A stretch of 34,330 nt of DNA from a virus. The position numbers were made by a program, and so were the translations under genes. The DNA is taken from positions 1 to 34,330 of IMG/VR virus record IMGVR_UViG_3300007640_000113. One strand, written 5' to 3'. The notes beneath the pieces are model-generated. The model ran no database searches and was not told where the DNA came from. It saw nothing but the letters and a program-made list of their open reading frames with translations. Shown piece by piece: positions 2,925 to 33,807 of this stretch (its first letter is position 1; each line of letters starts with the position of its first letter).

Positions 2925-2933
2925 GATCAAATA

Positions 2934-3420: not shown

Positions 3421-3445
3421 TAACTCTAAATAGAAAGGGCTCATC

Positions 3446-8585: not shown

Positions 8586-8727
8586 ATCATATTTCTCCTA
8601 TATATAGAGGGACTTCTCCCTGTAAGGGGACAGTATATTTAGTATATGACTAAAATAACACCACTAAACCTAGTAGATAAAACCGATATCACCACAATAT
8701 CTACTGTCCCCTAATAGGAGTCATTAA
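8586..8727. promoter_or_regulatory. divergent control region with 11-bp inverted repeat and three-base-loop hairpins
   Basis: AGGGGACAGTA (8625-8635) and TACTGTCCCCT (8702-8712) are perfect inverted copies 66 bases apart, between divergent genes. Read outward, each arm is TACTGTCCCCT followed by three bases and AGG. On the minus strand that is CCCCT-TAC-AGGGA (8629-8617); on the plus strand it is CCT-AAT-AGG (8710-8718). Each is thus a small hairpin with a three-base loop and a central A. The outward copies lie just before each gene's ribosome site. They could be two phage promoters, perhaps of the N4 hairpin kind, or paired operator sites. Confidence 0.5.
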
Positions 8728-15011: not shown

Positions 15012-15758
15012 ATGGACAATATAACTAAAAGCTACGTCTTCGTAGATGCAGACTCTATTCTATATAGTAGTTGCTATGGAGATGACGTAAGTAATTCTAC
15101 TATCTATAAACGATATATGGATAGGTTAAACTACATTAAGGTTCAATGCTTCTCAACAGATATGTTAGTGACTGTAAAAGGTCATAATAACTTTAGAGAT
15201 AAACTTGATCCAGAGTACAAGGCTAATCGAAAACCACTAGAGCCAATTATGAAAGAGCGGCTAAAGGCTGCACACGCTTATGCCCTAGAACTAGGAGCTG
15301 TACAAGCAGACGGTTGGGAAGCAGATGACCAAGTAGTATCGTGGGCATATGAAGCCACTCAAGAAGGAATGCCTTGGGTAATAGCAGCTATTGATAAAGA
15401 CCTATTACAAGTTCCGGGAACTCACTTCAACTATGGTGGGACAGAGAAGAAACCATTAGCAGAAGATAAGAAGTGGAACTTCATAGATCAGAAGGAAGGG
15501 GACTTCCGTTTCGCACGTCAACTACTAACAGGGGATACTGTTGATAACATCAAGGGAATTCATAGAGTAGGTCCAGTTAAAGCTGGTAAGGCGCTAGAAG
15601 GAAAAGATCGTAAAGGTATGATGAATACCATAGTGGACATGTATAAAGAAGAATATAAGACAGATTGGGAACGTAAACTAATCATGAATTGTAATCTAGT
15701 TTACATGAGAAGATGGTTAGATGATGAATTCGACTACAAGGTATGGCTGAATGAATAA
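15012..15758 (+). CDS. 5'-3' exonuclease / flap endonuclease, T7 gp6 type
   Basis: A 248-residue FEN-family nuclease. Acidic metal ligands fall in the usual order: D12 in VDADS, E103-A-D105-D106 in GWEADDQ, D128 and D130 in AIDKDLL, and D175/D178 in TGDTVDNI. The next segment, GIHRVGPVKAGKAL (182-195), is the helix-turn-helix that grips the duplex. YKANR (69-73) is the conserved basic arch. It would remove RNA primers and resect ends for recombination. AAAGGA precedes the start. It overlaps the GIY-YIG gene by eight bases. Confidence 0.92.
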   Translation: MDNITKSYVFVDADSILYSSCYGDDVSNSTIYKRYMDRLNYIKVQCFSTDMLVTVKGHNNFRDKLDPEYKANRKPLEPIMKERLKAAHAYALELGAVQADGWEADDQVVSWAYEATQEGMPWVIAAIDKDLLQVPGTHFNYGGTEKKPLAEDKKWNFIDQKEGDFRFARQLLTGDTVDNIKGIHRVGPVKAGKALEGKDRKGMMNTIVDMYKEEYKTDWERKLIMNCNLVYMRRWLDDEFDYKVWLNE

Positions 15759-16353
15759 CGGCCATTGGGAGTTTGAAAGAGAGATGAGCCCTAAAACACA
15801 TCAGGGATTTGTCTATCTAATAATTAACAAACTGACTCAACGTGTGTATATAGGGAAGAAGAGATACTTCTCAGTTACAACATTACCACCATTAAAAGGT
15901 AAGAAGCGTAACCGTAAACAGTTCAAAGAGATGGCGTGGCGATCCTACACAGGGTCGTCAGTTGAGTTAAACGAAAACATAGAAAAGTTAGGTAAGAGTA
16001 ATTTCTCATTTATCTGCCTATGTGAATGTGAGACACAAGCTGAACTAACATACACAGAGACCAAGTTGCAATTCGACATGAACGTACTCACAGATGTGAT
16101 GCCTTGTGGAGAAAGGAAATACTACAACAAAGCTATAGGGGCAATAAAGTTCCTACCGCCAAAGGTTGTAGCTGAAAGTACTAGAAACAAGTTAAGAGAA
16201 AAAGCCTATCTACTGCCGAGAGGAACATGTACACATTGTGGATACACATGTGACATAGCTAACCTAGCTAGATGGCATGAAGATAATTGTAGAGATAAAC
16301 CTAATGAACAACCCAACGATATCGGACCCGAGACTTCTAAGGGGAAGACATAG
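15751..16353 (+). CDS. GIY-YIG endonuclease, SegE-like, with C-terminal zinc finger
   Basis: A 200-residue protein. The first half is a GIY-YIG nuclease: GFVYLI at 19-24, VYIGKK at 32-37, a catalytic-type E103 in YTETKLQF, and YYNKAIG at 124-130. The pattern is closest to T4 SegE-type free-standing endonucleases. The second half ends in a Cys/His finger, C160-x2-C163...H176...C180, which would bind DNA. It lies where T7-like phages often keep recombination nucleases and could be a homing endonuclease or a recruited resolvase. Its 3' end is overlapped by the primase start, which is unusual for a recent invader. Confidence 0.8.
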   Translation: MNNGHWEFEREMSPKTHQGFVYLIINKLTQRVYIGKKRYFSVTTLPPLKGKKRNRKQFKEMAWRSYTGSSVELNENIEKLGKSNFSFICLCECETQAELTYTETKLQFDMNVLTDVMPCGERKYYNKAIGAIKFLPPKVVAESTRNKLREKAYLLPRGTCTHCGYTCDIANLARWHEDNCRDKPNEQPNDIGPETSKGKT

Positions 16354-18103: not shown

Positions 18104-18610
18104 ATGAAAGATATATGGATAACAAGTGACACACACTTCAACCATGAAAATATTCTTAAGTTTGAGGACAATCTGGGTAATAAGATAAGGGATTTTCATT
18201 ACGTACAAGAGATGAATGAGACAATCATACAAAATTGGAACTCAGTAGTAAAACAAGGGGATAAAGTATACCACCTTGGGGACGTAATGTTTGGTAGTAA
18301 GGATTGGTTTGCATTGAATTGGCCAAGGCTTAATGGATCAAAGAACTTAATAGTTGGAAACCATGACGATATCAAATACTTAAGTAGTGGTGGATTCTTT
18401 AAAAAGGTGTATATGTGGAGACTACTAAAAGAGCACAATATGCTCCTTACTCACGTTCCAGTACATGAAAGTAGTATAAGAAAAGTAGAGTTTAATGTAC
18501 ATGGACATATTCACAGACAAAAAAGTCCAACCAAGAGACACATAAATGTATGTGTAGAAAAAACTAATTACACACCTATAAATATAGATGAAGTTCTGAA
18601 GGGTAAATAA
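18104..18610 (+). CDS. calcineurin-like metallophosphoesterase
   Basis: A 168-residue protein with the full two-metal set: D9-x-H11 (SDTHFNH), G59-D60 (HLGDV), G85-N86-H87-D88, H117 (LTHVP) and G134-H135-x-H137. It belongs to the small bacterial and phage phosphoesterases; the substrate could be a cyclic nucleotide, a dinucleotide signal or a nucleic-acid end. Host-defence signals such as cyclic nucleotides are a possible target, but that is speculation. AAAGGA precedes the start. Its stop overlaps the RNA polymerase start (TAATG), so the two are made together. Confidence 0.9.
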   Translation: MKDIWITSDTHFNHENILKFEDNLGNKIRDFHYVQEMNETIIQNWNSVVKQGDKVYHLGDVMFGSKDWFALNWPRLNGSKNLIVGNHDDIKYLSSGGFFKKVYMWRLLKEHNMLLTHVPVHESSIRKVEFNVHGHIHRQKSPTKRHINVCVEKTNYTPINIDEVLKGK

Positions 18611-20988
18611 TGCAGGACATAAAAGATTACTTACAGAAGAAGATAGATAGGATCAGCCCTGACAACAGAAAGTTCAATGGGACTGGAGCTACGCTACTAA
18701 GGTTCGATAAAAGTGATAACGACCTAGATGATTATATCAACTCATGCATTCAATCTATAATGTCTTCAATGACTCGTAGTGAGATAGCTGGGATGGCTAA
18801 GTTAACACAAGTATCAACTGCTATTGGACAACGTATACTCTCAATGATGGGAGATAACGATGCTCCTTTCGATCAGAGAGTAAGACTAGGTGATCTATTT
18901 ATAGAAGCATTATACTCTCTGAACTATATCAACGTATATAGGGACCCCTCATTCTCTGAACACAACAGAGAGGCTCCCTATGTAATACACCTAGAGTCAA
19001 GGTGGTCAGAACTAGCTGAATACCCACTAGTAAGATCAAAGAAAGACTTAAGGGGAACATTCTCTGAACCACAGAAAGCGACAAGAGCCTGTCTAAAACG
19101 AGATAAGTTCACAAAAGAAGATTGGGCAGATATCTCAGAGTCTCAACATATATCAGCGGTAACGAAATTACAATCAGTCGCTCTAAGGATTAACCTAGAT
19201 GTACTTGAAGCGGTAAAGCTTAACCAAGACAAGTTCATAACTAATGGTAATGTCCAGATACCGAATGAAGGTAACAAGAAACGAATGGATGATCGTTACT
19301 ATGAGTGGAGACTTGAGGTAAATAGAGCTAAGGGTAAGGAAAGTAAGTTCTTAGATAAGAAAAAAGAGAACTACATTAAGGAAGCAGAACTATGGAACAA
19401 GAAGCTAATTGCACTGAAGGCACAAAGTAAGAAGACAGCCTTCACATACACATTGCAAAAGGCTGAACTCTTAAAGACAGAACCAGAGTTCTATCAGAGT
19501 ATCGAACTAGACTACAGAGGAAGGTTCTACTACTCAGAAAGCTTCTTCAACTTTCAAGGGACTGACATGGCTAGAGGACTCATTGAGTTCACAGAAGGAA
19601 AGCCAATAGATGAACGAGGAAGAAGGTGGCTTGCGATACATACAGCGTCTTCTTATAATGAATCCTACCTAATAGATGAGTTACCTGAATGGTGTGAAGA
19701 AGACTACAAAGAGTATCTAAAAGACGAAGGTCTGGACTCAATCTCTGTCGATAAGATGACTATGAATGATAGAGCTAATTGGACAGAGAACAATTACGAG
19801 AGGATAAAGGGTTATGTCAACCGAAAAGAAATACCAATTAAAGCAGAAAAACCTGTTGTGTTCTATGCATGCTGTGTGGAATGGACAGACTATCTTAATG
19901 ATCCCACAGGTCACATATCAAGACTTCCAATCCAAATTGATGGTTCAAACAATGGATGGCAGCATCTTGGAGCGATGTCGAAAGACAGTAAAACTGGTTC
20001 ACTTGTGGGCCTCGTTCCGTCTAAAATCCAAAGGGACTTCTATGTATCTACTGCTAAAGAACTAATAAAAATTATGCCTGATTGGTTCGCTGAGAAGCAG
20101 ATGCCAATGAAGCATATTCGTAAGGGAATTAGTAAACGTGGTAGTATGACAAGGGCTTACTCGGCTGGTGAAAAGACTATGGCTACCAATATGTATGCCG
20201 ATTGTTACCAAGAGGACTACACAGAGAAGTATGGGATCAGTGTTGATGATTGTAATAAACTATCACATAACCTGATAACGGCCATCAACAGAGTATGTCC
20301 CGGACCTCTGGAAACTATGTCATACCTACAGAAGCTTGCATCATTTGAGATAGGAACGTACACAATATATCGAGATGGGAAGGTAGCATCTAAAGCCTAC
20401 CAGAAGATCAAGAAGATAATCAAGGAACTCAAATGGAAGAAGATTAAGTCAGAAGAAGAACTAATTTCTCTGTCAGATGCAATCAACGAACAATCACAGT
20501 TTGAATCTAGACTTGTACATGGTAATGGTTCTAATACACTGAGGTGGGTTACTCCATCAGGGTTCTATGTGATCTATGAGAACTTCATTCAGAGATCAAT
20601 AAAGTGTAAAGGGACTATTAATGGCATCGGAAGGATTACACACGTAGCCTTCGAAAGAACTGAGATGCCTAATGTAAAAGGATACATGAGTGGTATCAGT
20701 CCTAACTTCGTACACTCAATGGATGCTGCCCACATGGCTATCATAATTGATAACTGGGAAGGTACATTCACAGCAGTACATGACGCCTTTGCATCACATG
20801 CATCAGACATGGATGAACTGCTGAGAGTAACAAAAGAAGCATTCATAATGATGTATAATAAGGAAAACTACTATGATGAAATCGAACAAACAATGCTCAG
20901 TAACAGTGAGAGTCTCACAGTCGAGCAGCCAAGTATTGGTGAACTTGATGTTTCAGAGATACGAGACTCAGATTACTTCTTCGCTTGA
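18610..20988 (+). CDS. single-subunit DNA-directed RNA polymerase, T7 type
   Basis: A 792-residue enzyme (T7: 883). D301-Y-R-G304-R305 is the DxxGR motif. Motif A is D444 in IDGSNNGWQH. Motif B has K509 and, eight residues later, Y517 in SKRGSMTRAY; the T7 Arg627 position is K505, next to R504. FVHSMDAAH (700-708) precedes motif C, H724-D725 in VHDAF. The C-terminus DYFFA resembles the DFAFA foot of T7 polymerase. It would transcribe middle and late genes from phage promoters. Unlike T7, the gene comes after the replication genes. It is not the only polymerase here: compare the virion gene at 21870-25496. Confidence 0.95.
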   Translation: MQDIKDYLQKKIDRISPDNRKFNGTGATLLRFDKSDNDLDDYINSCIQSIMSSMTRSEIAGMAKLTQVSTAIGQRILSMMGDNDAPFDQRVRLGDLFIEALYSLNYINVYRDPSFSEHNREAPYVIHLESRWSELAEYPLVRSKKDLRGTFSEPQKATRACLKRDKFTKEDWADISESQHISAVTKLQSVALRINLDVLEAVKLNQDKFITNGNVQIPNEGNKKRMDDRYYEWRLEVNRAKGKESKFLDKKKENYIKEAELWNKKLIALKAQSKKTAFTYTLQKAELLKTEPEFYQSIELDYRGRFYYSESFFNFQGTDMARGLIEFTEGKPIDERGRRWLAIHTASSYNESYLIDELPEWCEEDYKEYLKDEGLDSISVDKMTMNDRANWTENNYERIKGYVNRKEIPIKAEKPVVFYACCVEWTDYLNDPTGHISRLPIQIDGSNNGWQHLGAMSKDSKTGSLVGLVPSKIQRDFYVSTAKELIKIMPDWFAEKQMPMKHIRKGISKRGSMTRAYSAGEKTMATNMYADCYQEDYTEKYGISVDDCNKLSHNLITAINRVCPGPLETMSYLQKLASFEIGTYTIYRDGKVASKAYQKIKKIIKELKWKKIKSEEELISLSDAINEQSQFESRLVHGNGSNTLRWVTPSGFYVIYENFIQRSIKCKGTINGIGRITHVAFERTEMPNVKGYMSGISPNFVHSMDAAHMAIIIDNWEGTFTAVHDAFASHASDMDELLRVTKEAFIMMYNKENYYDEIEQTMLSNSESLTVEQPSIGELDVSEIRDSDYFFA

Positions 20989-21573: not shown

Positions 21574-21758
21574 GTAGTGCAGAAGAAGACCTTGAGTGGC
21601 TAATTCAGGCAGCGTATGAACATGGACTAACTCATGGATTTACTATTGGTAAGGCTAGATCACCTCGGCCAGAGGATGAGAAAGTACTTAGAGATGTAGC
21701 TAATACAGTTCGAGGAAAGATATCCGAAGGACTTAAGGCTACTATGGCGAACAAATGA
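21570..21758 (+). CDS. hypothetical protein, 62 residues
   Basis: Last plus-strand gene. AAAGGGG at 21555-21561 serves ATG 21570, which overlaps the previous stop by ATGA. A helical sequence with a His/Gly turn (AAYEHGLTHGFTIGKARS). Its TGA is the edge of the bidirectional terminator. No family is recognised. Confidence 0.6.
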   Translation: MSSAEEDLEWLIQAAYEHGLTHGFTIGKARSPRPEDEKVLRDVANTVRGKISEGLKATMANK

Positions 21759-21813
21759 AAAAATATGGACCTACTGATACTCATTGCGAGTACTAGTAGG
21801 TCCAGTTTTTTTT
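21758..21813. terminator. bidirectional intrinsic terminator between converging operons
   Basis: TGGACCTACT (21766-21775) and AGTAGGTCCA (21795-21804) form a perfect ten-pair stem, with a smaller ACTC/GAGT pairing inside. Eight Ts follow at 21806-21813 for the plus strand. Six As at 21758-21763 give the T-run for the minus strand. It ends both the early/middle block and the late operon. Confidence 0.92.
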
Positions 21814-21869: not shown

Positions 21870-24800
21870 CTAGTGCGCCCAGAATTGAAGTGCTCCCAGT
21901 CCGGTTCTCTGTTCCTGAGCTAGAACCTTGTCTCGTAGAATTTTACGATTACGATTAGTTTTCTCAGTGAACAGCTGAAGTCTACCCATGAGTTGAATCC
22001 TCTTTTCAACAGCAGAAATAATTGCTAAAGCCTCTCTAGAAGTAATTAACTCTGGGACGGAATCACCATTCAGGAAAGAATCACTATTTATATTACTAGA
22101 ACTGATTTCATTGAAAATCTCATAGAGTTCAGCTTGTAGGATTGAAGCCTGAGTACTGACGTACTTCTGATACTCACTAACTCTATCCTTAGCTATCTGA
22201 GGTTTATCGCTATCCTTACGAGCCATAATATTATTATCTCTATAGACGACATTACGATCAGGATCGATTGGGAATGCCGCAGAAATAAACGCCTTCATGG
22301 CGCTCCTACGGGCTATAAGATTACCACCAACAGGAGTCCACTCTGGGTCCATAAGAGAGTGCATGTAATCGAATGTACCATCCTTAAACGTCCACGTCTT
22401 ATCAGGAGCGGACTCAAGGACTCTTTTTGTATCATCCTTGAACTTTTGGTACTCTTTCTTAGCCTCTTCAATGAAGTTCCAATCACGAGTAGTAATATCT
22501 ACGAAGTTCTTATTGACTTCTTTTAACACTGAATGATAGCTATTAGCATCAACCTTATACGCATCATAGATTTGGAACACATAAGGCTCACCATTCACAG
22601 AGTCATCGGTAATAACTTTCCAAGAGTTACCTGAGAATGTACGAGTTACAACTGCGGCATCCATAGACTGCGTAGGGATAACAGACGAACGACCACGAAC
22701 GTATCCAGCGGCCTCACCGTCCTTCTTAGCAGCACTAGATGCTCTCATTGGAGAATCTTGTAGATTCATTGTTGCATCGACATTATCACTACGAACTCTG
22801 ATCTTAGAAGTCTGAGTTTGTGACTCATCAGGACGACCTTGTCCGAGAAGAATACGGTGTCCAGATGGACCTCTGATAGAGAACAGCTTGTCGAACATGG
22901 CATGCATGTAACCCACGGAGCGCATAACGCCTCTAGCATTAAATGTATCAGTTCCAAAGATTTCGAACAGAGCATGTACTACACTATCATGTGCAGCGTC
23001 CACTAAGTTATCCAGAGTGATACCAGAAGCTTCAAGAGATTCAATCTTGGAATTGATATCTGGCTGTGCTGTACGAAGTTCAGGTATGTGCTTCCTGATC
23101 TCTGCCTTTAGGCCAGCAAGCTCTTTACCATATGGGAATACCATAGTAACTGTCTTGTTGATTGGTCTAAATGAGGCTACAGCCTTAAGGACATCTCTGA
23201 TGTTCTCTGTTTTACCAGAAGCCTTATCAGAAGGTATAGTAGGAGTAGGTGTAGCGATAAGTCTATCAAGAATTATCTCTTCCATCCAATCTCTGAGGTC
23301 ACCATTATTAACTGCTTCCTCAGAACCATCATCACGAAGAACACCTACCCTGTACGCCAACTGCAAGTTACCCAACATAGCGCCTTGGTTAGCGACACCG
23401 TTGGTCTTACCGTCGATATAACCGTTTAAGTGTGTCTTGAATGGCTTACCTTGATCCATAGCATCGTTGAAGTTCTTGAAGTCTATCAGGGCATCAATAG
23501 CTGCGATAGCATCCTCTCCCTTTCTCTTTAGGAAGGGTGTAAGGTTCTCATCTTTCTTAATGAGCATAGTGAACTTCTGTAGACTCTGAGCCATATCAGG
23601 TGTGGCAGTACCATTAGCAATAGCTTCCATAGCAGGTTCCAAGGAACTAGCTGGGAATGCCTCATTGAGAGCATCTTCAAGAATCTTACCCCAGCTATAG
23701 TACATAGCTCGGTTATCTTGTAGATCAGCCATTCTACCCTTTGGAAGAAGGTTATCCTTACCGAAGTTAAGTGCTGCGATGTTCATGTATGCATCATACA
23801 CTCTACCACTCCTACCTCTTATGATAGCTGGCTGTATGGCACGAGTAACAGCACGAACAATCTTCTTACGAGTAGGATTGAACTCAGTCTGCTGTACCAT
23901 TTGACGACCAGCGAGAGGTTGCATAGCATATGTCAGGTAGTTTACACCTTTACGATACATAGATAGTGTCTTAATATCTGATGCTGCATCATTCTTCTTC
24001 ATCCCGGTGATCTTGACCGCTGTATCAACAGCCTGAGCGTGTTCCATACCATCGAGGTCCATCTTTTCGCGGACTAGTGTATCGAAGGATTCACGGCCAA
24101 GACCAAACCCATCACCAAACACATCATTTGGATCGCCTATTTTACCAAATAGAGTGGGAAACAGCAACGTCATTGCTACACGCATACGTCGATTATCCAC
24201 TACGTGACCAACACCTTGTTGGTTATAGATGGCTTCTTCAATCTCTGATAGTGTTGAATACGATGGGTCTTTACTATTACCACCAATAGCTCCCTTCTTA
24301 CGGAAAGCTGGTCTAAGCTGCGCCTTATCAGCTTGTAGACCGTCATGTGCTGGGTGGCTCTCTGGAGCAATATTGATACCGAGTGCTTTCTGACGGAACT
24401 CCCTTGTATGCTCAAGTACATCAGCGCCATAAGGAGTCAGTCTGAATCTCCAAGGTGCGATCTCACCATTTGCATCGGGTCTTCCCTTATCATTTACTCG
24501 TACCTTTTCCATTGATACCATCTCAGGATTAGCTTCAGCGAACGCCAGAAGGTGTTGCATACCTAAATCTTTGTTCTGTAGACCAGACATCTTAGATGCT
24601 GTAGTCTTACCTTCCTTTTCAGCATTCCACCAAGTACCTATAGCCCTACCTGTGCGTTCTGCAGCATCGGCTGGGTTGATAAGCTCGGTAGAGTACATAC
24701 CCTTACCTTCTTGATCATTATCATCGATGATATCATCCTCATCGAGGATATTAACCTCATCCTGAGCACCTAGGAACATCATATCGAGTTCGTTCTCTGT

Positions 24801-25496
24801 GGCGATCTGAGCTGTAATCAAGAAACGAGGATCAGGTGTGGCGAAGCCAGAAGTAGGATCGACAACTAGAGCATCAAGATTACCAGACATTGTCTGAAGA
24901 ATTGTATTCTTCTTATCTTCGACACTCTTAACGATCTTGTACCGCTCTCTCTTAGCTGCATTACGTTCTTCTTCATCTAGAGCCAAATCAATCTTCTTAT
25001 TGGCAGCGATGTAAGCCTCACGGTTAGCCGTGTCCACCTGTGTCCCTGAGAATGTAACGCTACCCTCAGAGCTATTTGATGGGTCCATACGAGCAGCAGT
25101 CCGCTTGGCTCGGTTGAGCATTGCAGCGGGTGGTGACTCGTTGGTTAGTTTGTAAGCTGGTGCCTGTGGCTGAGGTATACTACCCTCTGTCTGTTGACCA
25201 GTTGACCTCCAATCATCGAACGTAGGATTTAACTCTCCAGTACTAGCTGGACCCACGCGCTGACTAATCGGAACAAGTGTATCATCCTCATTGAAACCAG
25301 TAACACGAGGGCTTAGTGGCTCACGAGTTTCCTGTTCTACAGGAGCAGCCTCGGCCTCTCCCTGAAGGTCTACTGACTCAGAGAGAGAACCGATTGTGCT
25401 TTGTAAAATAGTCTTTAATGATTCACTAGGTGTTGGCGTGGATGTCTCGCCTCTTTGTAGTTTCTGAGCTTCGAGCCCAGCGCCTATTCTAGCCAT
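21870..25496 (-). CDS. putative virion RNA polymerase, N4 vRNAP-like, compact form
   Basis: A 1208-residue protein, last of the late operon. It carries single-subunit RNA polymerase motifs. Motif A: IDGKTNGVANQGAML, D695. Motif B: R777-x3-K781-x7-Y789-G790, the same R-K-Y spacing as T7 (627/631/639) and N4 vRNAP (666/670/678). SMDAA at 944-948 equals SMDAA of the 792-aa polymerase. Motif C is IYDAY with D978, where T7 has HD. A DxxGR-like SGRVY (R565) is followed by NFGKD; PLAGR at 527-531 is an alternative. About 130 N-terminal residues are low-complexity. N4 vRNAP is about 3500 residues, so this is a minimal version. It is probably packaged and ejected to start early transcription. AAGGAG precedes ATG 25496. 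Confidence 0.85.
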   Translation of the reverse strand: MARIGAGLEAQKLQRGETSTPTPSESLKTILQSTIGSLSESVDLQGEAEAAPVEQETREPLSPRVTGFNEDDTLVPISQRVGPASTGELNPTFDDWRSTGQQTEGSIPQPQAPAYKLTNESPPAAMLNRAKRTAARMDPSNSSEGSVTFSGTQVDTANREAYIAANKKIDLALDEEERNAAKRERYKIVKSVEDKKNTILQTMSGNLDALVVDPTSGFATPDPRFLITAQIATENELDMMFLGAQDEVNILDEDDIIDDNDQEGKGMYSTELINPADAAERTGRAIGTWWNAEKEGKTTASKMSGLQNKDLGMQHLLAFAEANPEMVSMEKVRVNDKGRPDANGEIAPWRFRLTPYGADVLEHTREFRQKALGINIAPESHPAHDGLQADKAQLRPAFRKKGAIGGNSKDPSYSTLSEIEEAIYNQQGVGHVVDNRRMRVAMTLLFPTLFGKIGDPNDVFGDGFGLGRESFDTLVREKMDLDGMEHAQAVDTAVKITGMKKNDAASDIKTLSMYRKGVNYLTYAMQPLAGRQMVQQTEFNPTRKKIVRAVTRAIQPAIIRGRSGRVYDAYMNIAALNFGKDNLLPKGRMADLQDNRAMYYSWGKILEDALNEAFPASSLEPAMEAIANGTATPDMAQSLQKFTMLIKKDENLTPFLKRKGEDAIAAIDALIDFKNFNDAMDQGKPFKTHLNGYIDGKTNGVANQGAMLGNLQLAYRVGVLRDDGSEEAVNNGDLRDWMEEIILDRLIATPTPTIPSDKASGKTENIRDVLKAVASFRPINKTVTMVFPYGKELAGLKAEIRKHIPELRTAQPDINSKIESLEASGITLDNLVDAAHDSVVHALFEIFGTDTFNARGVMRSVGYMHAMFDKLFSIRGPSGHRILLGQGRPDESQTQTSKIRVRSDNVDATMNLQDSPMRASSAAKKDGEAAGYVRGRSSVIPTQSMDAAVVTRTFSGNSWKVITDDSVNGEPYVFQIYDAYKVDANSYHSVLKEVNKNFVDITTRDWNFIEEAKKEYQKFKDDTKRVLESAPDKTWTFKDGTFDYMHSLMDPEWTPVGGNLIARRSAMKAFISAAFPIDPDRNVVYRDNNIMARKDSDKPQIAKDRVSEYQKYVSTQASILQAELYEIFNEISSSNINSDSFLNGDSVPELITSREALAIISAVEKRIQLMGRLQLFTEKTNRNRKILRDKVLAQEQRTGLGALQFWAH

Positions 25497-25510: not shown

Positions 25511-28500
25511 TTAACGTTTGATGTCAAAGTCAACTCCTGCTGCATTCTGGACCATCTTAGTGAATGGACCGAGAACAGGTGTTGCCCTCATAGCGTTGTA
25601 CTGTGCCATGTCAGTGTTGCCTTCATATGCGTAATCAGCGGCCTTGAGTAGTCTACGCATAGGACCCATTGCTGGCATCTCATCCGTAACCATCTCGAAC
25701 GTATTCTGAATCATTCCATTATCCCTCTTCTCGAAGGTTGGCCATATGAAGTTTAGTGCTCTTTCTGACTGACCAAGTAGGCCAGATGAATTGACAGCAC
25801 GACGAAGTTTCTCAGTACTGTTAAGGTAAGGTGATGGTTCACCGTACTTCAACCAGTCTTTCAGATACTGTGATGCGAAACCCATGAAGATCATGGATGT
25901 CATCATTGCAAACGTATTGTACTTCATTGCAGGACTACCACGTTTCACATAGTCACCCCAGAGTCTAGGGATGTGGTTAGCTGTAAAGGTAGCTATATAA
26001 CCATTGAACTGAGTGAATAGTGCTAACCTTGGGTCTTGGTATAGCAGAGGGCGATTAGCCGTGCCGGGAAGAGCCACTGTCTGATTAATGAAGTTGTACA
26101 TAGCCTGATCTTCATACTCTTGGTACTGTTGTTTCTGCTTAGGAGTCATAGAACCTTCGTCCATAGCGTAGAGAGTGATATACTTATCAACTGGTACACC
26201 GAGATTGAGTAGCTCCTGTCTAGAGAACCTATACATCTCACTCTTGGGATCACTATTCTTAATGATCTCTATGTGATCTCGTGTGTAGTCACCAAATTGA
26301 GCTAGTCTCATAGCTCGGTTAGCGTTGGTAAGGTCGTGTAGGAAGTTAGCCTTGAAGAAACGATCAACCCAAGTCTTGGCCCAATCGCTCTGCTCTGTAG
26401 CACCAACTGTAGATGCTGCACCAGCCTCTTGTGTCATATAACCAAGATGCTGTAGAACCTTCATGTTCTCCCCCTCTGGGATATACTCTCTTCCTGTAAA
26501 GACTTCATTACCTACTCTATGTAGATACCTACCCATACCCTTAGCAAGCTCCATACTCATAGGCATGATATTACCAAAGATTTGTTTCTGGGTTAGTCCA
26601 CCCGCTGTCAACATCAACTCTACAGTAGAGGAGAGTGCTGATAGTGGTAGTGATGTAGCTAGTGACCACAACAATATAGTACGTTGAACACCAATAGCAC
26701 GTTCACCATATGAACCTTTAGGTGGTCTCTTATAGTTACCTGACTGAGCCTCTAGATACTGCTGGATGGACTTAGCCATCATATTGATTTCTTTCTTAGG
26801 GACACCCTGCTTCTCAGCTTCCTTGAGTAGCTGTGTTACTCTCCAGTTATCCTTACCCACATAATTGTGGAATGTCTCAAATCGTGCAGCCATACGAGCC
26901 CCTTCCTTGAAGTTATGGAATGGGTCTTGATGGAAGAACTCAGTGAACTTAGGGTGCTGTGAGAGTGCCATAGTACGCTTCTTAGCTTGTGTAGCTGGAA
27001 TGCCTTTAGTAAGTAGATCGAATACTCCTTCATCCAGACCATCTAGTGGTTCACCATCTAGTATCTTATTAGTAAGGTCTGTAGCAGCAGACTTAGACAT
27101 GGATGCCTCAGAACGAAGTAGCAGTTCGAAGTCAGCACGTTTATCTGAGACGATCTCTCTGTTTATGGCCTTGAACTTACCGAAGTAGTTTCTAAGCCGC
27201 TTGATCTTCTCTTGCGGTTGATAAGGTATAGTCATTCCAGTAATCGGGTCGATAGAATCCTTACCATTCTTGTTCCATGCAATGTTCTGACGTTGACGCA
27301 TGATAGAAGCTGCCTTCTGTCGTTGCTCAACAAAATGACGAACCATGTTCTTATTAGGGTCCTTAGAGTACTTGTGCCATACATCGCTCTCAACTCCGTC
27401 CCACCGAGACCAGTCGAATGCAGCATTAGCTTGTTGTTCTGACATCTTAGGGTTAGCTTCTAGGAAAGCATTGTAGGCTGTATCTACTTGATTTATGATA
27501 CTTCCAAACTTAGCCTTAGACGCAGAGTCTCTAGCACCAATAACTGGATTACCCTTAGCTAGTCCTCTGTAGAATATCTTCTCAGAGCTACTATCACCAA
27601 TTAGGTTAACATAGGACTGATTGAGGAAGTGCATAGACTCCTCGTAAGTTCTACCAGCCTTAAAGCGACCAACTGTTGCGCCAAACATAGCACCTAGTTG
27701 TCTGTAAGAGGTACTCTTTATCAGAGAGTCCTTAGCCATTCTAGCCCGCATCATCCCACGCCATAGCATAGGTAAGTTCTTGAATGAGTCTACGGCTCTC
27801 TCGGTCATATCGCGACCCTTATTCTCGAGTACGTGCTCCGAAGCCATGTCAATAATCTCAGTACCAGTCTCATCACTACGCTTCATACTGTCCAAGGTTT
27901 CCCCTATCTCAGAGTTACCTTCTAGTTTAGCCAACTCACCTTCGAAAGAACTTCTATTTGAGTCTCCACGGTTCCAAGCAGCATTGGCCCAAGAACCAGT
28001 TTCAGCCACGCCACCAGCACCGCCAAGTGAGCCACCAAGCGCCCCACCAGCAACCGCTGCGTTGGTGATACGATCAAGGAATTCAGAATTGAATTCACCG
28101 TGGTCAAGGATACCGAAATTCTCCTCGTTCCAGTCTTCACCAATCTGAGCCAGAGTTTCTTGAGCAGCTTCAGTAACTGCCTCCGACCCAGCACCCTTAG
28201 CAGCACGATTGAGCAGAGCACGAGTAACATTTCTTGCACTAAGTTGTTTAGCAATGATGTTATCTGCATCTTGTACCAATCCCATTAGTTCTGTTTTTGT
28301 AGCCTTACCGATAGTGGCTCTAGCCTGTGTACGAGCAGAAGCAGACGATACACCCTTAGCAACTAATCTAGCCGTAAGTACATCTTCCCCTTCCTTAAGT
28401 ACCGCCTTAAGTGTCTTACCACCAACCTGAAGACCTTTCAGACCTACTCTATCCATAGCTGCTTGTGCCAGTCCAGAGGACATAGCTACCTGCCAGTTCT

Positions 28501-29533
28501 TCTCATCTTGTGAGTTGTAGACCTGACCAGCATAGACTGCTGTAGTTGACGAAAGTCCGACGATTGTACCACCGATTGCACCTAGGACACCACCGACTGC
28601 AGTACCAAGTACTGGAGTTACCGCTGTACCAATTACTGAACCAGCAACACTACCTGCGACTGCTGTTGCAATCGTATTGGCCATGTATGGTGAGGACATT
28701 GCTGCGTTGTTAGCTACATAACTAAATGCATTACTAATAGAGTCAACATCCTTGTAGTCGATAAGTACTTCAGGCTTCTTAGCAAGCTCTCCCTGCTTAT
28801 AAGCTACAGCTATTTGTCCTTGTAGCTCCTTCTCACGGTTTCCCGTAGCGAACCCTATAGCTTGTTTCATGCCAGAGAATCCAGCACTCATACCGAGTAG
28901 GGCTGTGTCGAAGGAAGTACTAAGTGGTGATAGCGCCTCATTGTCCAGTGTTCTATCAAGATGACGAAGTGTTACGCCAGCATGTAGGTCAGGATCATAC
29001 TCTGACTCATCTAGAGCCAGTGTCTTGAAGTTAATATCACCATTACTATCACGTATTGAGTCTGAGATAACGTCGAAAGCTTCCTGAGATGCTTCATCTC
29101 TCTCGGCTCCCGCGTTTCTCTGTGCTGTACCAATAATCTTCTGATCGATGTAGGTTTCGTCAGAGTATGGGTTAGCTCGTGTTAATCCTTCAGAGGCCAG
29201 CTTGTAGCTGAGTCTCTCACCAGTATCAGGGTTAACCATATCACCGATAGAACGGCCATATTTATCTTTCTTTCCTGATCTGTAGACATCTGTGAAACCA
29301 CCTTCCTGAGCAATCTTAGCCACACCTTGATGGTAAGCTTGTCCTGCTGCATGGTAGTCGGTATCATCAGTGTAGTCACTTGAGTGAGCTACCTCTGGTG
29401 TGTTGATGTTGTCAATACGAATGGACTCTCCGCTTGAAGTACGGACTGTATCACCATCGATGAACATGTTGTCACCAGCAGAAGCGTCGAACAACTTTCC
29501 TACAATTTTCTTAGGGTCTAGGGTAGAGCCCAT
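25511..29533 (-). CDS. large ejection-type virion protein with N-terminal SNase (thermonuclease) domain
   Basis: A 1340-residue protein. Residues 20-150 match staphylococcal nuclease: IDGDTV with metal ligand D28, R39 in IRIDNINTPE, E47, and R94 in DKYGRS, i.e. the catalytic Arg/Glu/Arg. N44 replaces Asp40. Residues about 286-332 form a long Gly/Ala/Val hydrophobic stretch, and another Gly-rich stretch lies near 490-515; these suit insertion into a membrane, as in podovirus ejection proteins of the T7 gp16 class. The rest is long and helical. It sits between the 634-aa protein and the polymerase-like protein, with AAAGGAGAT before ATG 29533. A nuclease in the ejected set could cut host DNA or trim peptidoglycan-bound nucleic acid; the target is unknown. 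Confidence 0.85.
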   Translation of the reverse strand: MGSTLDPKKIVGKLFDASAGDNMFIDGDTVRTSSGESIRIDNINTPEVAHSSDYTDDTDYHAAGQAYHQGVAKIAQEGGFTDVYRSGKKDKYGRSIGDMVNPDTGERLSYKLASEGLTRANPYSDETYIDQKIIGTAQRNAGAERDEASQEAFDVISDSIRDSNGDINFKTLALDESEYDPDLHAGVTLRHLDRTLDNEALSPLSTSFDTALLGMSAGFSGMKQAIGFATGNREKELQGQIAVAYKQGELAKKPEVLIDYKDVDSISNAFSYVANNAAMSSPYMANTIATAVAGSVAGSVIGTAVTPVLGTAVGGVLGAIGGTIVGLSSTTAVYAGQVYNSQDEKNWQVAMSSGLAQAAMDRVGLKGLQVGGKTLKAVLKEGEDVLTARLVAKGVSSASARTQARATIGKATKTELMGLVQDADNIIAKQLSARNVTRALLNRAAKGAGSEAVTEAAQETLAQIGEDWNEENFGILDHGEFNSEFLDRITNAAVAGGALGGSLGGAGGVAETGSWANAAWNRGDSNRSSFEGELAKLEGNSEIGETLDSMKRSDETGTEIIDMASEHVLENKGRDMTERAVDSFKNLPMLWRGMMRARMAKDSLIKSTSYRQLGAMFGATVGRFKAGRTYEESMHFLNQSYVNLIGDSSSEKIFYRGLAKGNPVIGARDSASKAKFGSIINQVDTAYNAFLEANPKMSEQQANAAFDWSRWDGVESDVWHKYSKDPNKNMVRHFVEQRQKAASIMRQRQNIAWNKNGKDSIDPITGMTIPYQPQEKIKRLRNYFGKFKAINREIVSDKRADFELLLRSEASMSKSAATDLTNKILDGEPLDGLDEGVFDLLTKGIPATQAKKRTMALSQHPKFTEFFHQDPFHNFKEGARMAARFETFHNYVGKDNWRVTQLLKEAEKQGVPKKEINMMAKSIQQYLEAQSGNYKRPPKGSYGERAIGVQRTILLWSLATSLPLSALSSTVELMLTAGGLTQKQIFGNIMPMSMELAKGMGRYLHRVGNEVFTGREYIPEGENMKVLQHLGYMTQEAGAASTVGATEQSDWAKTWVDRFFKANFLHDLTNANRAMRLAQFGDYTRDHIEIIKNSDPKSEMYRFSRQELLNLGVPVDKYITLYAMDEGSMTPKQKQQYQEYEDQAMYNFINQTVALPGTANRPLLYQDPRLALFTQFNGYIATFTANHIPRLWGDYVKRGSPAMKYNTFAMMTSMIFMGFASQYLKDWLKYGEPSPYLNSTEKLRRAVNSSGLLGQSERALNFIWPTFEKRDNGMIQNTFEMVTDEMPAMGPMRRLLKAADYAYEGNTDMAQYNAMRATPVLGPFTKMVQNAAGVDFDIKR

Positions 29534-29551: not shown

Positions 29552-31456
29552 TTATTTCTCAGAATTTGTAGTAAGAGTAACCTTGAGGAATGAGTAGAAC
29601 CCATCCTTCTTTGTATACTCATTCTTATCTACAGGATCGAGAGCTTGATATGCCTTATAAGCATCAGTCATGAATGTATTAATAACAGTACCACGATCTA
29701 GCTTACCTTCTTTAGCTACATACTCTTCTTCTTGAGACAACCAATTAATGATGTCTCTATTCAGTCCAGCAATTTGATCTGGCTGTAGCTTGTCTCCGTT
29801 AGAACGTAGTTCCTGTGTCCACTTAACGTCTGGACGCATATACACGATCTGGGAGTCGATGAAGGGCAGTAAGCTCTTTACTGGAGCATTACCATTAGCT
29901 TGTGACCAACTCTTAGCTGAGTCATAAGCATTAGCTATAATACGAGAACTAACACCAGAGTCCACATCAATTCCAAGTTCCTGACGGAATGATTCAATAT
30001 AGTCTTCAGCTATATTAGCCTCTGCTTCTGCTGATGCCTGTAGGAATGGAGTATTGTATTCACCTTCCACTTCAGCATCTGCACTAATCTTCTGAGTAAT
30101 AACCTTACTATGAAGGTCAACTGACTTCTTACGGATAGCCGCGATACCAGTTGCATCCTTTGGATCGTTTGGATCATAAACCATCTCAGCGCCAACCTCG
30201 TTTCCTTGGAAGTCGATGTAAGTCTTATTACCAGTTGCGTTGTTAGTAGCTTCGTAAACGATCTTACCATTCTTAGTTACCTTTCGCTTAGTGCGATCAT
30301 ATGTAACACCAGACTTAGCAGGATCAGTTACAGCAACAAGTTCACCTATATTACCAGATAGGCGATACTTCTCGATAGACTTGGGTGTGTACTTACCCTG
30401 ACCAGCTAGTCTGTTGGAGATGTCAGAACGATTAGTAAGTCCCTCTGCAGCTACACCGAAGCTCCAACTCATGGAAACCCCGTGGTCGTAACCAGCAATA
30501 CGACTACCAACATACAGTAGGGCAAAACGATTAAGGTCCTGACCTGTGATCCCGAATGTACGATTGATCCAAGACATAGCCTTAGCCCAACCAGATGGGT
30601 CTTCTTTCTTTACTGTATCTACATCTGCCGCAGTAACTTTAACATTACCACCGCTTGGTGTTGGGACAGGCGGCTCGGAGTCTACCATAGGAATACCATC
30701 TGGTCCCTGTGGAGTAACAAGCTCATCAGCTACCATTTGGCTCTGTTCAGCCTCTTCAGCAGTAATAGAAGATGGATCGATATCAGTATCAACTACTGGC
30801 TTACCTTCCATGATAGCTCGCTGACGCTGACGTACTTTGTTAGCCTCTGCAATATCTTCCATGTTTCCGGGATTTACACGATCACCATTCTCATCGATAA
30901 CTCTTGAACGAGTTTTAGGATTTCTAGTTTCATGCTGTAGATCACTGTAGCCACCATATACACCCTCATAGTCTCCCATTGAGAGCGTTGAGGAGCCGAA
31001 TGATTCCATATTATACTGGTCTAGGTAATTCTGAATACCCTCATCAGTTGATAAATCCTTAATTGTCTCATTCTTTTCTGGTGGAATGACGCTCTCTTCG
31101 AACATCTCTGGTACTACAGGTGATTCAGGTGCTTCAAGGTCTGGGATACCAGTAGCTATCTTAGGAACTTCATCATATGTAGAGTTCTTGATTTCTACCT
31201 GTCTGTTCATCGCATCTACTCCCTTAAGCCCTAGGTTCCGTAGTTGAACTAGTGGGTTTGTCTCTCTAGGTGGTAGTACAATATCATTCCCTTGACCCTG
31301 TGGCATAGGAACCTGATACGGAGTTGCCATTTGTTCGTTAATCATATTAGGTGTGACTAACTCTTCCCCTTCCTCCAGTTTTACCATAGAAGGAGATTGA
31401 TTCATTGGTACTTGTTCCCTCTGGAATATATTACCAATCATTTTAGAAAAGTCCAT
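29552..31456 (-). CDS. putative internal virion protein, 634 residues
   Basis: I recognise no family. The first half is low in structure and rich in Pro, Glu and Gln (e.g. VPMPQGQGNDIVLPP). A hydrophobic helix-like region near 290-330 (FGITGQDLNRFALLYVGSRIAGY) and helical C-terminal parts follow. Size, position between the muramidase and the SNase protein, and one-base overlap with the former (TAATG) make an internal or ejection role (T7 gp15-like place) the best guess. AAGGAG precedes ATG 31456. Confidence 0.7.
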   Translation of the reverse strand: MDFSKMIGNIFQREQVPMNQSPSMVKLEEGEELVTPNMINEQMATPYQVPMPQGQGNDIVLPPRETNPLVQLRNLGLKGVDAMNRQVEIKNSTYDEVPKIATGIPDLEAPESPVVPEMFEESVIPPEKNETIKDLSTDEGIQNYLDQYNMESFGSSTLSMGDYEGVYGGYSDLQHETRNPKTRSRVIDENGDRVNPGNMEDIAEANKVRQRQRAIMEGKPVVDTDIDPSSITAEEAEQSQMVADELVTPQGPDGIPMVDSEPPVPTPSGGNVKVTAADVDTVKKEDPSGWAKAMSWINRTFGITGQDLNRFALLYVGSRIAGYDHGVSMSWSFGVAAEGLTNRSDISNRLAGQGKYTPKSIEKYRLSGNIGELVAVTDPAKSGVTYDRTKRKVTKNGKIVYEATNNATGNKTYIDFQGNEVGAEMVYDPNDPKDATGIAAIRKKSVDLHSKVITQKISADAEVEGEYNTPFLQASAEAEANIAEDYIESFRQELGIDVDSGVSSRIIANAYDSAKSWSQANGNAPVKSLLPFIDSQIVYMRPDVKWTQELRSNGDKLQPDQIAGLNRDIINWLSQEEEYVAKEGKLDRGTVINTFMTDAYKAYQALDPVDKNEYTKKDGFYSFLKVTLTTNSEK

Positions 31457-32217
31457 TATTCTTTCTCCTTCTTACGTTTAATTTTGAATGACACTGGTCC
31501 AGAGAATTGGACAGGTCTTAGTGGTGGTGGTGCAGCTACCTTTGGCGGTGGGTCAGACTGGCCACCTCCGAATAGTGAGGACACAGCCGACTCTATAGCC
31601 AAATCTTTGGCTGAAACCAGAATTCCGTCTATAGTCTCATTACCTGTTATAACTGGTACTGAATCTGGTACTGGTGGTACTGAATCTGGTACTGGTGGAA
31701 CTCCCTCTGCTGAATTGTATTCATCAGATGCACGACCTTCTCTCGGAACTCCACTTACAATAGGTGGAACATAGTCTTCCCCCAGATAGCTTGCTGAGTT
31801 TCTCATGTGGTCTTGGAAGTTAGACGATAGAACTTTATCGGTAACTGATCCCGGAGCACCACCACTATTCTCGTCAGATGCGTTAACTGCATCAATATTA
31901 CCAGCATTAATAGCAGCATACATTGGCAGTGTTCCCATACCAGACTTCAGTCCGCGATCAGATAGATACTGTCCTGCAGCCTTAACTTGGTCTGATACAG
32001 ACATATCCTTAGATACACCATATTGTTTTCGTTGTGGTTCACCCCATTGGATAAGACCACGATGCTCACCCCACTTTGTAGTAGGGCCTTTCTGCCAAGG
32101 ATCATAGGTTCCACCAGTCTCATACCCGATAATACCGAGTAGGTCTTGTGGTGACCATCCTCTGGCTGCTGCTTCTGCCTTTACGGCTTCAATCATTTCT
32201 GCTGATGGTTTACCCAT
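31456..32217 (-). CDS. virion-associated lysozyme-like muramidase
   Basis: Read from ATG 32217 (253 residues), one base after the previous stop and with AGGTAAG before it; the frame is open ten codons upstream to a TTG. Residues 20-70 hold the lysozyme-like site: GIIGYETGGTYDPWQKG with E33 as the likely acid, then HRGLIQWGEPQRKQYG. This matches the transglycosylase/lysozyme segment found in podovirus internal proteins and would open peptidoglycan during DNA entry. Behind it is a Pro-rich linker with a perfect 21-bp tandem repeat, then a C-terminal part without known motifs. Confidence 0.82.
   Translation of the reverse strand: MGKPSAEMIEAVKAEAAARGWSPQDLLGIIGYETGGTYDPWQKGPTTKWGEHRGLIQWGEPQRKQYGVSKDMSVSDQVKAAGQYLSDRGLKSGMGTLPMYAAINAGNIDAVNASDENSGGAPGSVTDKVLSSNFQDHMRNSASYLGEDYVPPIVSGVPREGRASDEYNSAEGVPPVPDSVPPVPDSVPVITGNETIDGILVSAKDLAIESAVSSLFGGGQSDPPPKVAAPPPLRPVQFSGPVSFKIKRKKEKE
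31655..31696 (-). repeat. 21-bp perfect tandem repeat in the muramidase linker
   Basis: Bases 31655-31675 and 31676-31696 are identical. On the minus strand they code for two copies of a PVPDSVP-type heptapeptide in a flexible linker. Confidence 0.92.
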
Positions 32218-32218
32218 G

Positions 32219-32635
32219 TTACTTACCTGCCAGCTTTTTACCACCAATCAAAGCAGCACCAATAGCTAGTGGAGCAGTGATGGGGTTAGTCATTGCAGAG
32301 GCCATAAGTCCAGAGCCTAATCCAGATGCAGCAGCGCCACCAGCAGCGGCTCCGGTTGCAGCGGCTCCTGCACCAGCGGCTCCTGCTCCTAACGCACCAG
32401 CAGCACCAGTAGCGAGTGGGGCAGCTGCAGATGCGGCAGTTGGAGCCAGCTTAGCGAAGAGTGCTTCAGCGCCTTTAGTTGCAAGTTTATTTGCTCCTGC
32501 CGATGCAGCTTGCATAGCGATTTTCTCTGCAGGTCCTACCTGACGTGTAGGTGCTTCTGCCTGTGCTGCATTATGCTGCATTGTTGGCATAAGAGGAGCG
32601 GCTGGACCTCGTTGTTTTAATTTTTCGAAAGCCAT
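32219..32635 (-). CDS. small Ala/Gly-rich membrane-active virion protein
   Basis: A 138-residue protein; residues about 65-130 are nearly all Ala, Gly, Ser and Leu (APLATGAAGALGAGAAG... SAMTNPITAPLAIGAALIGG). This could span or disturb a membrane. Position upstream of the muramidase in the ejection gene group suggests an internal virion protein like T7 gp14 in role, not in sequence. AGGAGG precedes ATG 32635. Confidence 0.7.
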   Translation of the reverse strand: MAFEKLKQRGPAAPLMPTMQHNAAQAEAPTRQVGPAEKIAMQAASAGANKLATKGAEALFAKLAPTAASAAAPLATGAAGALGAGAAGAGAAATGAAAGGAAASGLGSGLMASAMTNPITAPLAIGAALIGGKKLAGK

Positions 32636-33055
32636 TTACTTTCCTCCTGTTGATATAGGCCTACCAGTTGTAGGCGTTGGTGCTAAAGATAGACCCATAG
32701 GTTTCATTACTGGACCATTCGGAGCCATAGTACCACCACCAAGTGCTGCCATAGCTGGTCTACGTTCATTAGCGCCTTGACGCGCTGCAGTAGCCATAGC
32801 ATTCTTAACATAGTCAGAGCCAGATATAAGTTCCTGCTCTTGAGCTTGTTGTTGATCCATGAAGTTATTAAACCCATTAAGGGTTGAGTCTACATTGGAC
32901 ATATCTGTTCCACCAGTATTACCTAGTGACATTAGTGGTGCAGTAGTGGAAGTGGCCTTAGCTAAATTTGATGTCGTACCAGATGCACTTCCACCGCCAG
33001 TCCCGCCGCCACCACCCATAGCTATAACATTATAGGGGTTTAAGCACTTTAGCAT
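32636..33055 (-). CDS. Gly-rich virion protein, 139 residues
   Basis: A low-complexity N-terminus (MGGGGGTGGGSASGTTSN) follows a short hydrophobic start; the middle has a Gln-rich helix (FNNFMDQQQAQEQEL) and the end is Pro/Gly-rich. GGAGGTAAG precedes ATG 33055, which overlaps the previous stop (TAATG). No family is recognised; a structural role is inferred from the operon only. Confidence 0.65.
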   Translation of the reverse strand: MLKCLNPYNVIAMGGGGGTGGGSASGTTSNLAKATSTTAPLMSLGNTGGTDMSNVDSTLNGFNNFMDQQQAQEQELISGSDYVKNAMATAARQGANERRPAMAALGGGTMAPNGPVMKPMGLSLAPTPTTGRPISTGGK

Positions 33056-33807
33056 TACTTACCTCCAGATTTAGACTTAGTATTGGAGACCTGCTTTTGA
33101 TCTGTCATGAGTGGTGTAAATACTTGCATACCAGTTAGGTAGTTCTCAAGTCCTTTAGCTTCGGAGTCAAGTCCTTCCTGAGCGATATCTCTCTGTACGC
33201 CACCCATATTCAGGTAGGCATCCAGTAGACCAGCTTCTCCTGTACCAGAGTTCATCATGGAGTCTGCACCCCACATAGCACGTTCCTTGGTAAGATTGCT
33301 TTGGTCGTAATCGAGCTGTGCCATCACATTCGCCATCTGAGCTTCTCTATCACCAGCTGCAATAGCTGATCTCGATGATCCCATCATACCTGCTTTAGCC
33401 ATGTTGTCATTCTGAAGACCTGACTCAAGTTTAGCTTGGTCGATAGCGGCTTGTTTGATAGCTGCATTGTCGGTAGGGTCGAATAGACCAGTACCAGCCA
33501 TAGCATCAGTATATGATCTACGAGCTGCTTCCATAGCGTCCATACCAGAATCTAGGCTATCCTCAGCACGTCCGAATACCATACTCTGTAGGTCAGACTC
33601 ACCAGCTACTCTACCGAGTGCTCCTGAATCGTACATAGATTTTAGATCATCTAGACCAGTATCAACTACTGGCTTGAAGTCTTTATTAATTGTAGTTTTA
33701 GATGTGGTAGTTCCTGAGCTACTACCACCACCGCCCTTTCTAGGTGCGGCTTCCCATTGATTTATATGTTTCATCACTGGGTTCAGTAAGCTTGTCATTA
33801 GACTCAT
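33055..33807 (-). CDS. internal virion protein-like, 250 residues
   Basis: A Gly/Ser-rich N-terminal linker (APRKGGGGSSSGTTTSK) is followed by a long helical region with many Ala, Gln and Met residues (AAIKQAAIDQAKLESGLQNDNMAKAGMMGSS is typical, in parts). This is the style of small podovirus core or ejection proteins. GGAGA before ATG 33807 supports the long start, even though it overlaps the GNAT-like gene by 68 bases; ATG 33774 is an alternative. No specific family is recognised. Confidence 0.7.
   Translation of the reverse strand: MSLMTSLLNPVMKHINQWEAAPRKGGGGSSSGTTTSKTTINKDFKPVVDTGLDDLKSMYDSGALGRVAGESDLQSMVFGRAEDSLDSGMDAMEAARRSYTDAMAGTGLFDPTDNAAIKQAAIDQAKLESGLQNDNMAKAGMMGSSRSAIAAGDREAQMANVMAQLDYDQSNLTKERAMWGADSMMNSGTGEAGLLDAYLNMGGVQRDIAQEGLDSEAKGLENYLTGMQVFTPLMTDQKQVSNTKSKSGGK

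What the first reader, a model, noticed from the sequence alone, without database searches (positions are those of the whole stretch)
21870..25496. A compact N4-type virion RNA polymerase hidden in the 'internal virion protein' position
The sequence shows D695 in IDGKTNGVANQGAML (compare IDGSNNGWQH of the other polymerase here), R777-x3-K781-x7-Y789-G with exactly the T7 and N4 spacing, an SMDAA block before motif C, and D978 in IYDAY. The order and distances (D695 to R777 82, Y789 to D978 189) sit between those of T7 (90, 173) and N4 vRNAP (107, 273). Established knowledge: N4 packages a roughly 3500-residue polymerase and injects it. Inference: this 1208-residue protein is a minimal form that starts early transcription without the host enzyme.
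Basis: partly seen in the sequence, partly recalled or inferred. Interest (0 to 1): 0.95.

Follow-up and report, generated by a model that had tools for sequence, protein, structure and literature searches.

The report
Compact injected phage RNA polymerase
A little-known group of phages, including a marine Roseobacter phage, carries a hidden second RNA polymerase about a third the size of the famous N4 one, placed among the proteins injected into the host, so it probably starts reading the viral genes on its own.

Summary
The ORF is real (minus strand, 25496 to 21870, 1208 aa) and is a single-subunit RNA polymerase. Motifs A, B and C are as read. D695, Y789-G790 and D978 are four of only seven columns invariant across 21 relatives that are mostly 12-16% identical. 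PHROGs, profile-profile and template-free AlphaFold/Foldseek results all point to T7, mitochondrial and N4 polymerases, and controls are clean. The gene is the last of the late arm, beside the ejection-type proteins, converging on the phage's own T7-like polymerase. N4 gene 50 sits in the same place. Like N4 vRNAP it has no cysteine, in any of 22 relatives. Corrections: the DxxGR arginine is more likely R531 than R565, and the D695-R777 spacing (82) is outside, not between, T7 (90) and N4 (107). By the published definition it is not an N4 vRNAP: it is too short, lacks the ExDG glutamate, lacks the N4 flanking domains, and is paired with a single-chain T7-like RNAP. It is a third, divergent lineage filling the vRNAP role. 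Roseobacter phage CRP-7 (gp33) carries a relative, so it can be tested. Packaging, injection and early transcription are inferred.

The parts
21870..25496 (-). Compact virion-type single-subunit RNA polymerase, 1208 aa (residue 1 at 25496)
   Evidence: ORF; phrog_414 RNA polymerase; hhalign vs N4 vRNAPs P=1.1e-7 with negative controls; AlphaFold + Foldseek
23853..23909 (-). DxxGR-type block GR531QMVQQTEFN540P541TRKK545IVR548 (residues 530-548)
   Evidence: aligned by hhalign with N4 GR424..N432P433..K437..R440; T7 GRVYAVSMFNPQ
23382..23426 (-). Motif A, N691-G-Y-I-D695-G-K-T-N-G-V-A-N-Q-G (catalytic D695)
   Evidence: D695 invariant in 21 relatives
23127..23168 (-). Motif B / O helix, R777-x3-K781-x7-Y789-G790
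   Evidence: Y789-G790 invariant in 21 relatives; helix in the model
22653..22670 (-). QSMDAA block (residues 943-948) before motif C, like T7 HSQDG
22557..22571 (-). Motif C, IYD978AY (catalytic D978), beta-hairpin in the model
   Evidence: D978 invariant in 21 relatives
25511..29533 (-). 1340-aa partner ejection protein: SNase-like N-terminus, glycine zipper/membrane region, virion structural family; no cysteine
   Evidence: PF00565 E=2.6e-4, phrog_6958 virion structural protein E=4.8e-23; partial profile similarity to N4 vRNAP N-terminal domain P=6e-5 over 115 columns
29552..31456 (-). 634-aa protein next in the ejection cluster; no cysteine
   Evidence: same order in relatives
31456..32247 (-). 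263-aa protein with a weak lysozyme/tail-hub match
   Evidence: phrog_4928 E=2.3e-5, phrog_21656 peptidase E=2e-4
33055..33807 (-). 250-aa protein, weak match to a DNA ejection protein family
   Evidence: phrog_4287 E=0.015
18610..20988 (+). The phage's own T7-like single-chain RNA polymerase (792 aa), last long gene of the plus-strand arm
   Evidence: PF00940 E=2e-56, phrog_414 E=7e-105; 37% to CRP-7 gp30
21758..21812 (.). Bidirectional terminator-like hairpin with T-runs on both sides between the two convergent polymerase genes
   Evidence: inverted repeat; fold -27.9 kcal/mol, z=-5.8

Best explanation
The gene encodes an active DNA-directed RNA polymerase of the T7/N4 single-subunit superfamily. 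It is made late, packaged in the head with the neighbouring ejection proteins, and pushed through the tail into the host at the start of infection. Inside the cell it would transcribe the first phage genes before any phage protein is made, and may help pull the DNA in. The T7-like polymerase made from the plus-strand arm would then take over, as RNAPII does in N4. Unlike N4, the polymerase is a stand-alone chain of about 1200 residues: it has no N4-like membrane-anchor or C-terminal regulatory domain. The membrane role is probably carried by the separate 1340-aa partner. Shown here: the polymerase fold and conserved catalytic residues, the gene position and the lack of cysteine. Inferred: packaging, ejection, early transcription, the order of the two polymerases and the division of labour with the partner protein.
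For: (a) Polymerase identity: phrog_414 RNA polymerase in 4 of 21 relatives, best E=5.3e-6, and no other family; hhalign to N4 vRNAPs P=1.1e-7 over 663 columns with reversed, shuffled and unrelated controls P>=0.06; to a T7-like family P=1.8e-5 / 5.4e-7; template-free AlphaFold model, pLDDT 72, pTM 0.66, whose 50 listed PDB hits are all single-subunit RNA polymerases, including N4 mini-vRNAP 3c46 E=1.4e-10 and T7 3e2e E=1.3e-11. (b) Selection on the active site: D695, Y789, G790 and D978 are invariant across 21 proteins, mostly 11-16% identical to it. (c) The divergent CRP-7-type clade gives only single-subunit RNAPs in its listed PDB hits (best E=1e-6). (d) Virion role: last gene of the late arm, next to ejection-type proteins, in every contig long enough to show it, and the same place as N4 gp50. 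(e) No cysteine in 22 relatives (26,313 residues), as in nine schitovirus vRNAPs; expected about 15 in P0001 alone at the plus-strand rate, P=2e-7. (f) The CRP-7 portal is in the same PHROG as the N4 portal.
Against: No virion proteomics, no transcription data and no recognised early promoters: only one intergenic stem of at least 7 bp with a 3-5 nt loop was found, although the left end of the genome may be missing. The N-terminal 132 residues were not modelled. TM-scores are modest (0.3-0.5), and parts of the model are poor. The outer clades are tied in by motif alignment, synteny and fold rather than by significant family HMM hits. Low cysteine is partly shared by other virion proteins, for example CRP-7 gp51 with 0 in 1166.
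Confidence: 0.77

Rival explanations
1. An active RNA polymerase that is not packaged: a second intracellular enzyme made late, for example to transcribe a special late or replication-linked class of genes.
For: It lies in the late arm and the fold and active site are intact. No virion proteomics was found for this group.
Against: Zero cysteine in 22 relatives while the intracellular T7-like enzyme has 9. Always embedded next to the ejection cluster. Same place as the packaged N4 enzyme.
Confidence: 0.12
2. A polymerase-derived ejection protein that kept the fold but uses it mainly to hold or pull in DNA rather than to make specific early mRNA.
For: Fast sequence divergence outside the active site; R777 and K781 vary and are swapped in the CRP-7 clade.
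Against: The catalytic aspartates and Y-G are among only seven invariant columns, which is hard to explain without catalysis.
Confidence: 0.08
3. A non-polymerase internal virion protein with chance motif resemblance.
For: No Pfam family; single-sequence PDB search gives nothing.
Against: Two template-free fold predictions both retrieve only single-subunit RNA polymerases among the listed hits; profile matches with clean controls.
Confidence: 0.02

Closest known systems
N4 virion RNA polymerase (gp50) of Schitoviridae
   Same: Single-subunit RNAP core with motifs DxxGR, A (DGxTNG), B (RxxxKx7YG) and C; no cysteine; last gene of the late arm at the convergence point beside ejection proteins; profile match P=1.1e-7.
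   Different: 1208 aa instead of 2,842-3,820; no ExDG glutamate (Y693); no match to the N4 N-terminal or C-terminal domains; companion is a single-chain T7-like RNAP, not a heterodimer; no hairpin promoters recognised.
Roseobacter phage CRP-7 gp33 (MK613349, annotated hypothetical protein)
   Same: Syntenic gene of 1235 aa, convergent to a T7-like RNAP 37% identical to the window's; conserved motif A D, YG and motif C HD; no cysteine; a close homologue folds as a single-subunit RNAP.
   Different: BLASTP to the window protein is not significant; K and R of motif B are swapped; the passages read of the CRP-7 paper do not mention a second polymerase.
T7 RNA polymerase and T7-like phage RNAPs
   Same: Same fold and same motif B spacing; SxDG/SMDA block; phrog_414 match at low score.
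   Different: Longer than these enzymes, encoded in the late ejection cluster rather than with early/middle genes, no cysteine; motif C is YD instead of HD in the near clade.
Putative vRNAP of podophage StenR_269 and Zobellviridae internal virion proteins (PMC10747016)
   Same: Proposed on similar grounds: large, cysteine-free, helical, in the position of an internal virion protein.
   Different: That proposal had low-confidence models and reported no motif or fold match in the passages read; here motifs, profile and fold are shown.

Membership tests
N4 vRNAP (Schitoviridae) | Single-subunit RNAP core with DxxGR and motifs A, B, C | tested here: met
N4 vRNAP (Schitoviridae) | Giant size, 2,842-3,820 aa in reference genomes; under 2,500 aa excluded (PMC10654107) | tested here: not met
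   1208 aa; relatives with complete ORFs 1142-1294 aa
N4 vRNAP (Schitoviridae) | Conserved ExDGxxxG in motif A (PMC10654107) | tested here: not met
   DGxxxG present, but the E position is Y693; E557 is invariant in 9 schitovirus vRNAPs
N4 vRNAP (Schitoviridae) | Three domains: membrane NTD, RNAP, large CTD (PMC12633501) | tested here: not met
   Family matches only the N4 core, not NTD or CTD. An NTD-like segment lies in the neighbouring protein (P=6e-5)
N4 vRNAP (Schitoviridae) | Encoded at the end of the late arm beside the other ejection proteins | tested here: met
N4 vRNAP (Schitoviridae) | Companion heterodimeric RNAPII (all but two vRNAP phages in PMC4496689) | tested here: not met
   Single-chain 792-aa T7-like RNAP
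N4 vRNAP (Schitoviridae) | Early promoters are hairpins with a 3-base loop on the template strand | tested here: inconclusive
   One intergenic stem>=7 hairpin only; left end of genome may be missing
N4 vRNAP (Schitoviridae) | Packaged in the virion and injected | not testable with these tools
   Only indirect: position, neighbours, no cysteine
T7-like single-subunit RNAP superfamily (with mitochondrial and N4 enzymes) | Right-hand RNAP fold and invariant catalytic D, Y-G, D | tested here: met
T7-like single-subunit RNAP superfamily (with mitochondrial and N4 enzymes) | DNA-directed RNA synthesis | not testable with these tools
   needs purified protein

The most novel reading that the evidence does not exclude
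A separate, fast-evolving lineage of virion RNA polymerases exists outside Schitoviridae. In it the polymerase is a stand-alone 1200-aa chain, and the membrane-channel part that N4 fuses to its polymerase lives on the neighbouring, nuclease-bearing ejection protein. N4's giant enzyme would then be a derived fusion, or this one a split, and injected polymerases would be more common among marine phages than annotation shows.
Probability: 0.4. Interest if true: 0.8.

Novelty: new variant of a known kind. Interest (0 to 1): 0.7.

Why it matters
Virion-carried single-subunit polymerases are known as a hallmark of N4-like phages, and a published survey for them discarded proteins under 2,500 aa (PMC10654107), so this group could not have been seen that way. 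The CRP-7-type group is reported as widespread in the ocean (PMC6918029). A packaged polymerase one third the size of N4's, with an isolated host-phage pair (CRP-7), makes it testable which parts of N4 vRNAP are needed for packaging, ejection and early transcription. It also gives a new compact RNA polymerase.

Tried and rejected
Single-sequence searches of P0001 were uninformative: Pfam, PDB phmmer and GenBank phages by tblastn; Foldseek was needed. A profile hmmsearch of PDB also gave nothing real. The idea that the 1340-aa neighbour carries N4's C-terminal domain (a FIN..LPG-like stretch) was tested and not supported (P=0.025-0.15); the N-terminal-domain link is only a lead (P=6e-5 over a glycine-rich stretch). 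Assigning the lineage to N4 or T7 by motif blocks was unresolved. No repeated promoter motif and no Rfam element besides the tRNA was found. Relatives in bacterial genomes: none found. R565 as the DxxGR arginine was set aside in favour of R531. Cysteine-poverty alone is not proof, since other virion proteins are also poor in it.

Full report
WHAT IS THERE. The window is a 34,330-base virus record from IMG/VR. Plus-strand genes run from the left end to 21758: rIIA/rIIB-like genes, a ThyX-like gene and a ribonucleotide-reductase-like gene (the last two read from sequence), DNA polymerase, primase/helicase and a 792-aa T7-like RNA polymerase at 18610-20988. A strong bidirectional hairpin at 21758-21812 separates them from a minus-strand late arm. 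The first gene met there, which is the last one transcribed, is the 1208-aa ORF of the finding. Upstream of it lie a 1340-aa virion structural protein, a 634-aa protein and smaller proteins with weak ejection or lysozyme matches.

CHECK OF THE OBSERVATION. The ordered motif pattern is matched by 0 of 20,000 shuffles of the protein, and a looser one by 1. Two statements fail. The D695-R777 distance (82) is smaller than in both T7 and N4, not between them. The arginine of the DxxGR motif is more likely R531: the block GR531QMVQQTEFNPTRKKIVR repeats N4's GR424MQMLGKYNPQSAKLVR and T7's GRVYAVSMFNPQ, and profile alignment pairs it with N4's.

IS IT A POLYMERASE? Five lines agree. First, a relative with 57% identity (L002) hits the PHROGs RNA polymerase family at 2.9e-5; 4 of 21 relatives do so, best E=5.3e-6, and no other family is hit. 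Second, a five-member profile matches nine schitovirus vRNAP cores with P=1.1e-7 over 663 columns, while reversed, column-shuffled and unrelated controls give P of 0.06 or worse. It also matches a T7-like family with P=1.8e-5, or 5.4e-7 for the 21-member profile. Third, a template-free AlphaFold model of residues 133-1208 (pLDDT 72, pTM 0.66) retrieves single-subunit RNA polymerases in all 50 listed PDB hits, including T7 and N4 mini-vRNAP, and phage RNA polymerases and schitovirus vRNAPs in the viral library. Fourth, the position-matched proteins of other phages share the site. They were found through their T7-like polymerase and by position. In an alignment at mostly 12-16% identity only seven columns are invariant: D695, G718, R735, Y789, G790, G879 and D978. 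Fifth, a second model, of the CRP-7-type clade (pLDDT 60, pTM 0.55), also retrieves only single-subunit RNA polymerases in its listed PDB hits (best E=1e-6).

IS IT A VIRION POLYMERASE? The evidence is indirect. The gene sits at the end of the late arm beside ejection-type proteins, and the same order (RNA polymerase, convergent 1.1-1.3 kaa gene, 1.3 kaa partner) recurs in the related contigs. N4 encodes its vRNAP in the same place: the last late gene, at the point of convergence, followed upstream by gp51 and gp52. All 22 family members (26,313 residues) lack cysteine, as do nine schitovirus vRNAPs and the two large ejection-type neighbours. The plus-strand proteins of the window carry 1.26% cysteine, giving a chance of 2e-7 for none in 1208 residues. 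Other virion proteins of CRP-7 are cysteine-poor too, so this marks virion and envelope passage rather than the polymerase itself. CRP-7's portal belongs to the same PHROG as N4's portal.

HOW IT WORKS. By analogy with N4 (PMC12633501, PMC4496689), the protein would be packaged with its neighbours, ejected through the tail, refold in the cytoplasm and transcribe the first genes. The T7-like enzyme would then take over. [quoted passage not shown] Neither matches this family. A segment of the N4 N-terminal domain weakly resembles the 1340-aa neighbour (P=6e-5 over 115 columns), suggesting that the anchor is a separate chain here. The C-terminal domain showed no counterpart. These steps are inference.

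FAMILY. Published N4-vRNAP criteria are a length of 2,842-3,820 aa and ExDGxxxG (PMC10654107). This protein meets neither in full. N4-like phages carry a heterodimeric RNAPII in all but two cases (PMC4496689); here the companion is one chain. Over full length the near clade is nearer to N4 vRNAP, while in motif blocks it is slightly nearer to T7-like enzymes. I therefore call it a third lineage of the superfamily that works like an N4 vRNAP, not a member of that family. CRP-7 gp33 (a hypothetical protein; not discussed in the passages of PMC6918029 that I read) is a distant member and can be cultured.

LIMITS. No promoters were recognised, the left end of the genome may be missing, active-site distances could not be measured, and nothing here shows packaging or RNA synthesis.

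Noticed in passing
window 25511-29533 (-), residues 22-145: The partner ejection protein starts with a staphylococcal-nuclease-like domain (PF00565, E=2.6e-4, above cut-off). The I-D-G/A-D-T, R, E and YGR-like positions are largely kept in 11 relatives: a possible injected nuclease.
   Followed up: partly
CRP-7 (MK613349) 49611-51845: The CRP-7 portal falls in the same PHROG (1216) as the N4 portal, although its capsid and terminase hit other families, so this group may be a distant relative of Schitoviridae.
   Followed up: partly
window 20-120: A long, stable stem-loop element near the left end (MFE -48 kcal/mol, z=-3.9), with no Rfam match.
   Followed up: partly
window 207-230 and 496-519: A perfect 24-nt direct repeat; the second copy lies in the start of the 485-775 gene and the first in a short upstream ATG frame that ends at once, like a duplicated gene start.
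   Followed up: no
window 15751-16353: SegE-type GIY-YIG (homing-type) endonuclease gene overlapping the start of the primase/helicase gene; also present in L002.
   Followed up: no
window 8586-8727: Structured intergenic region where a lone minus-strand gene (8163-8585) diverges from the plus-strand genes (z=-4.2).
   Followed up: no
window 1858-1934: tRNA-Arg (TCT); the CRP-7 paper reports the same tRNA in CRP-7.
   Followed up: no
alignment A4, R735: An arginine invariant in all 21 relatives at the place where N4 vRNAPs have the invariant D-x-Y612 (T7 has D-I-Y): a possible signature of this lineage.
   Followed up: no
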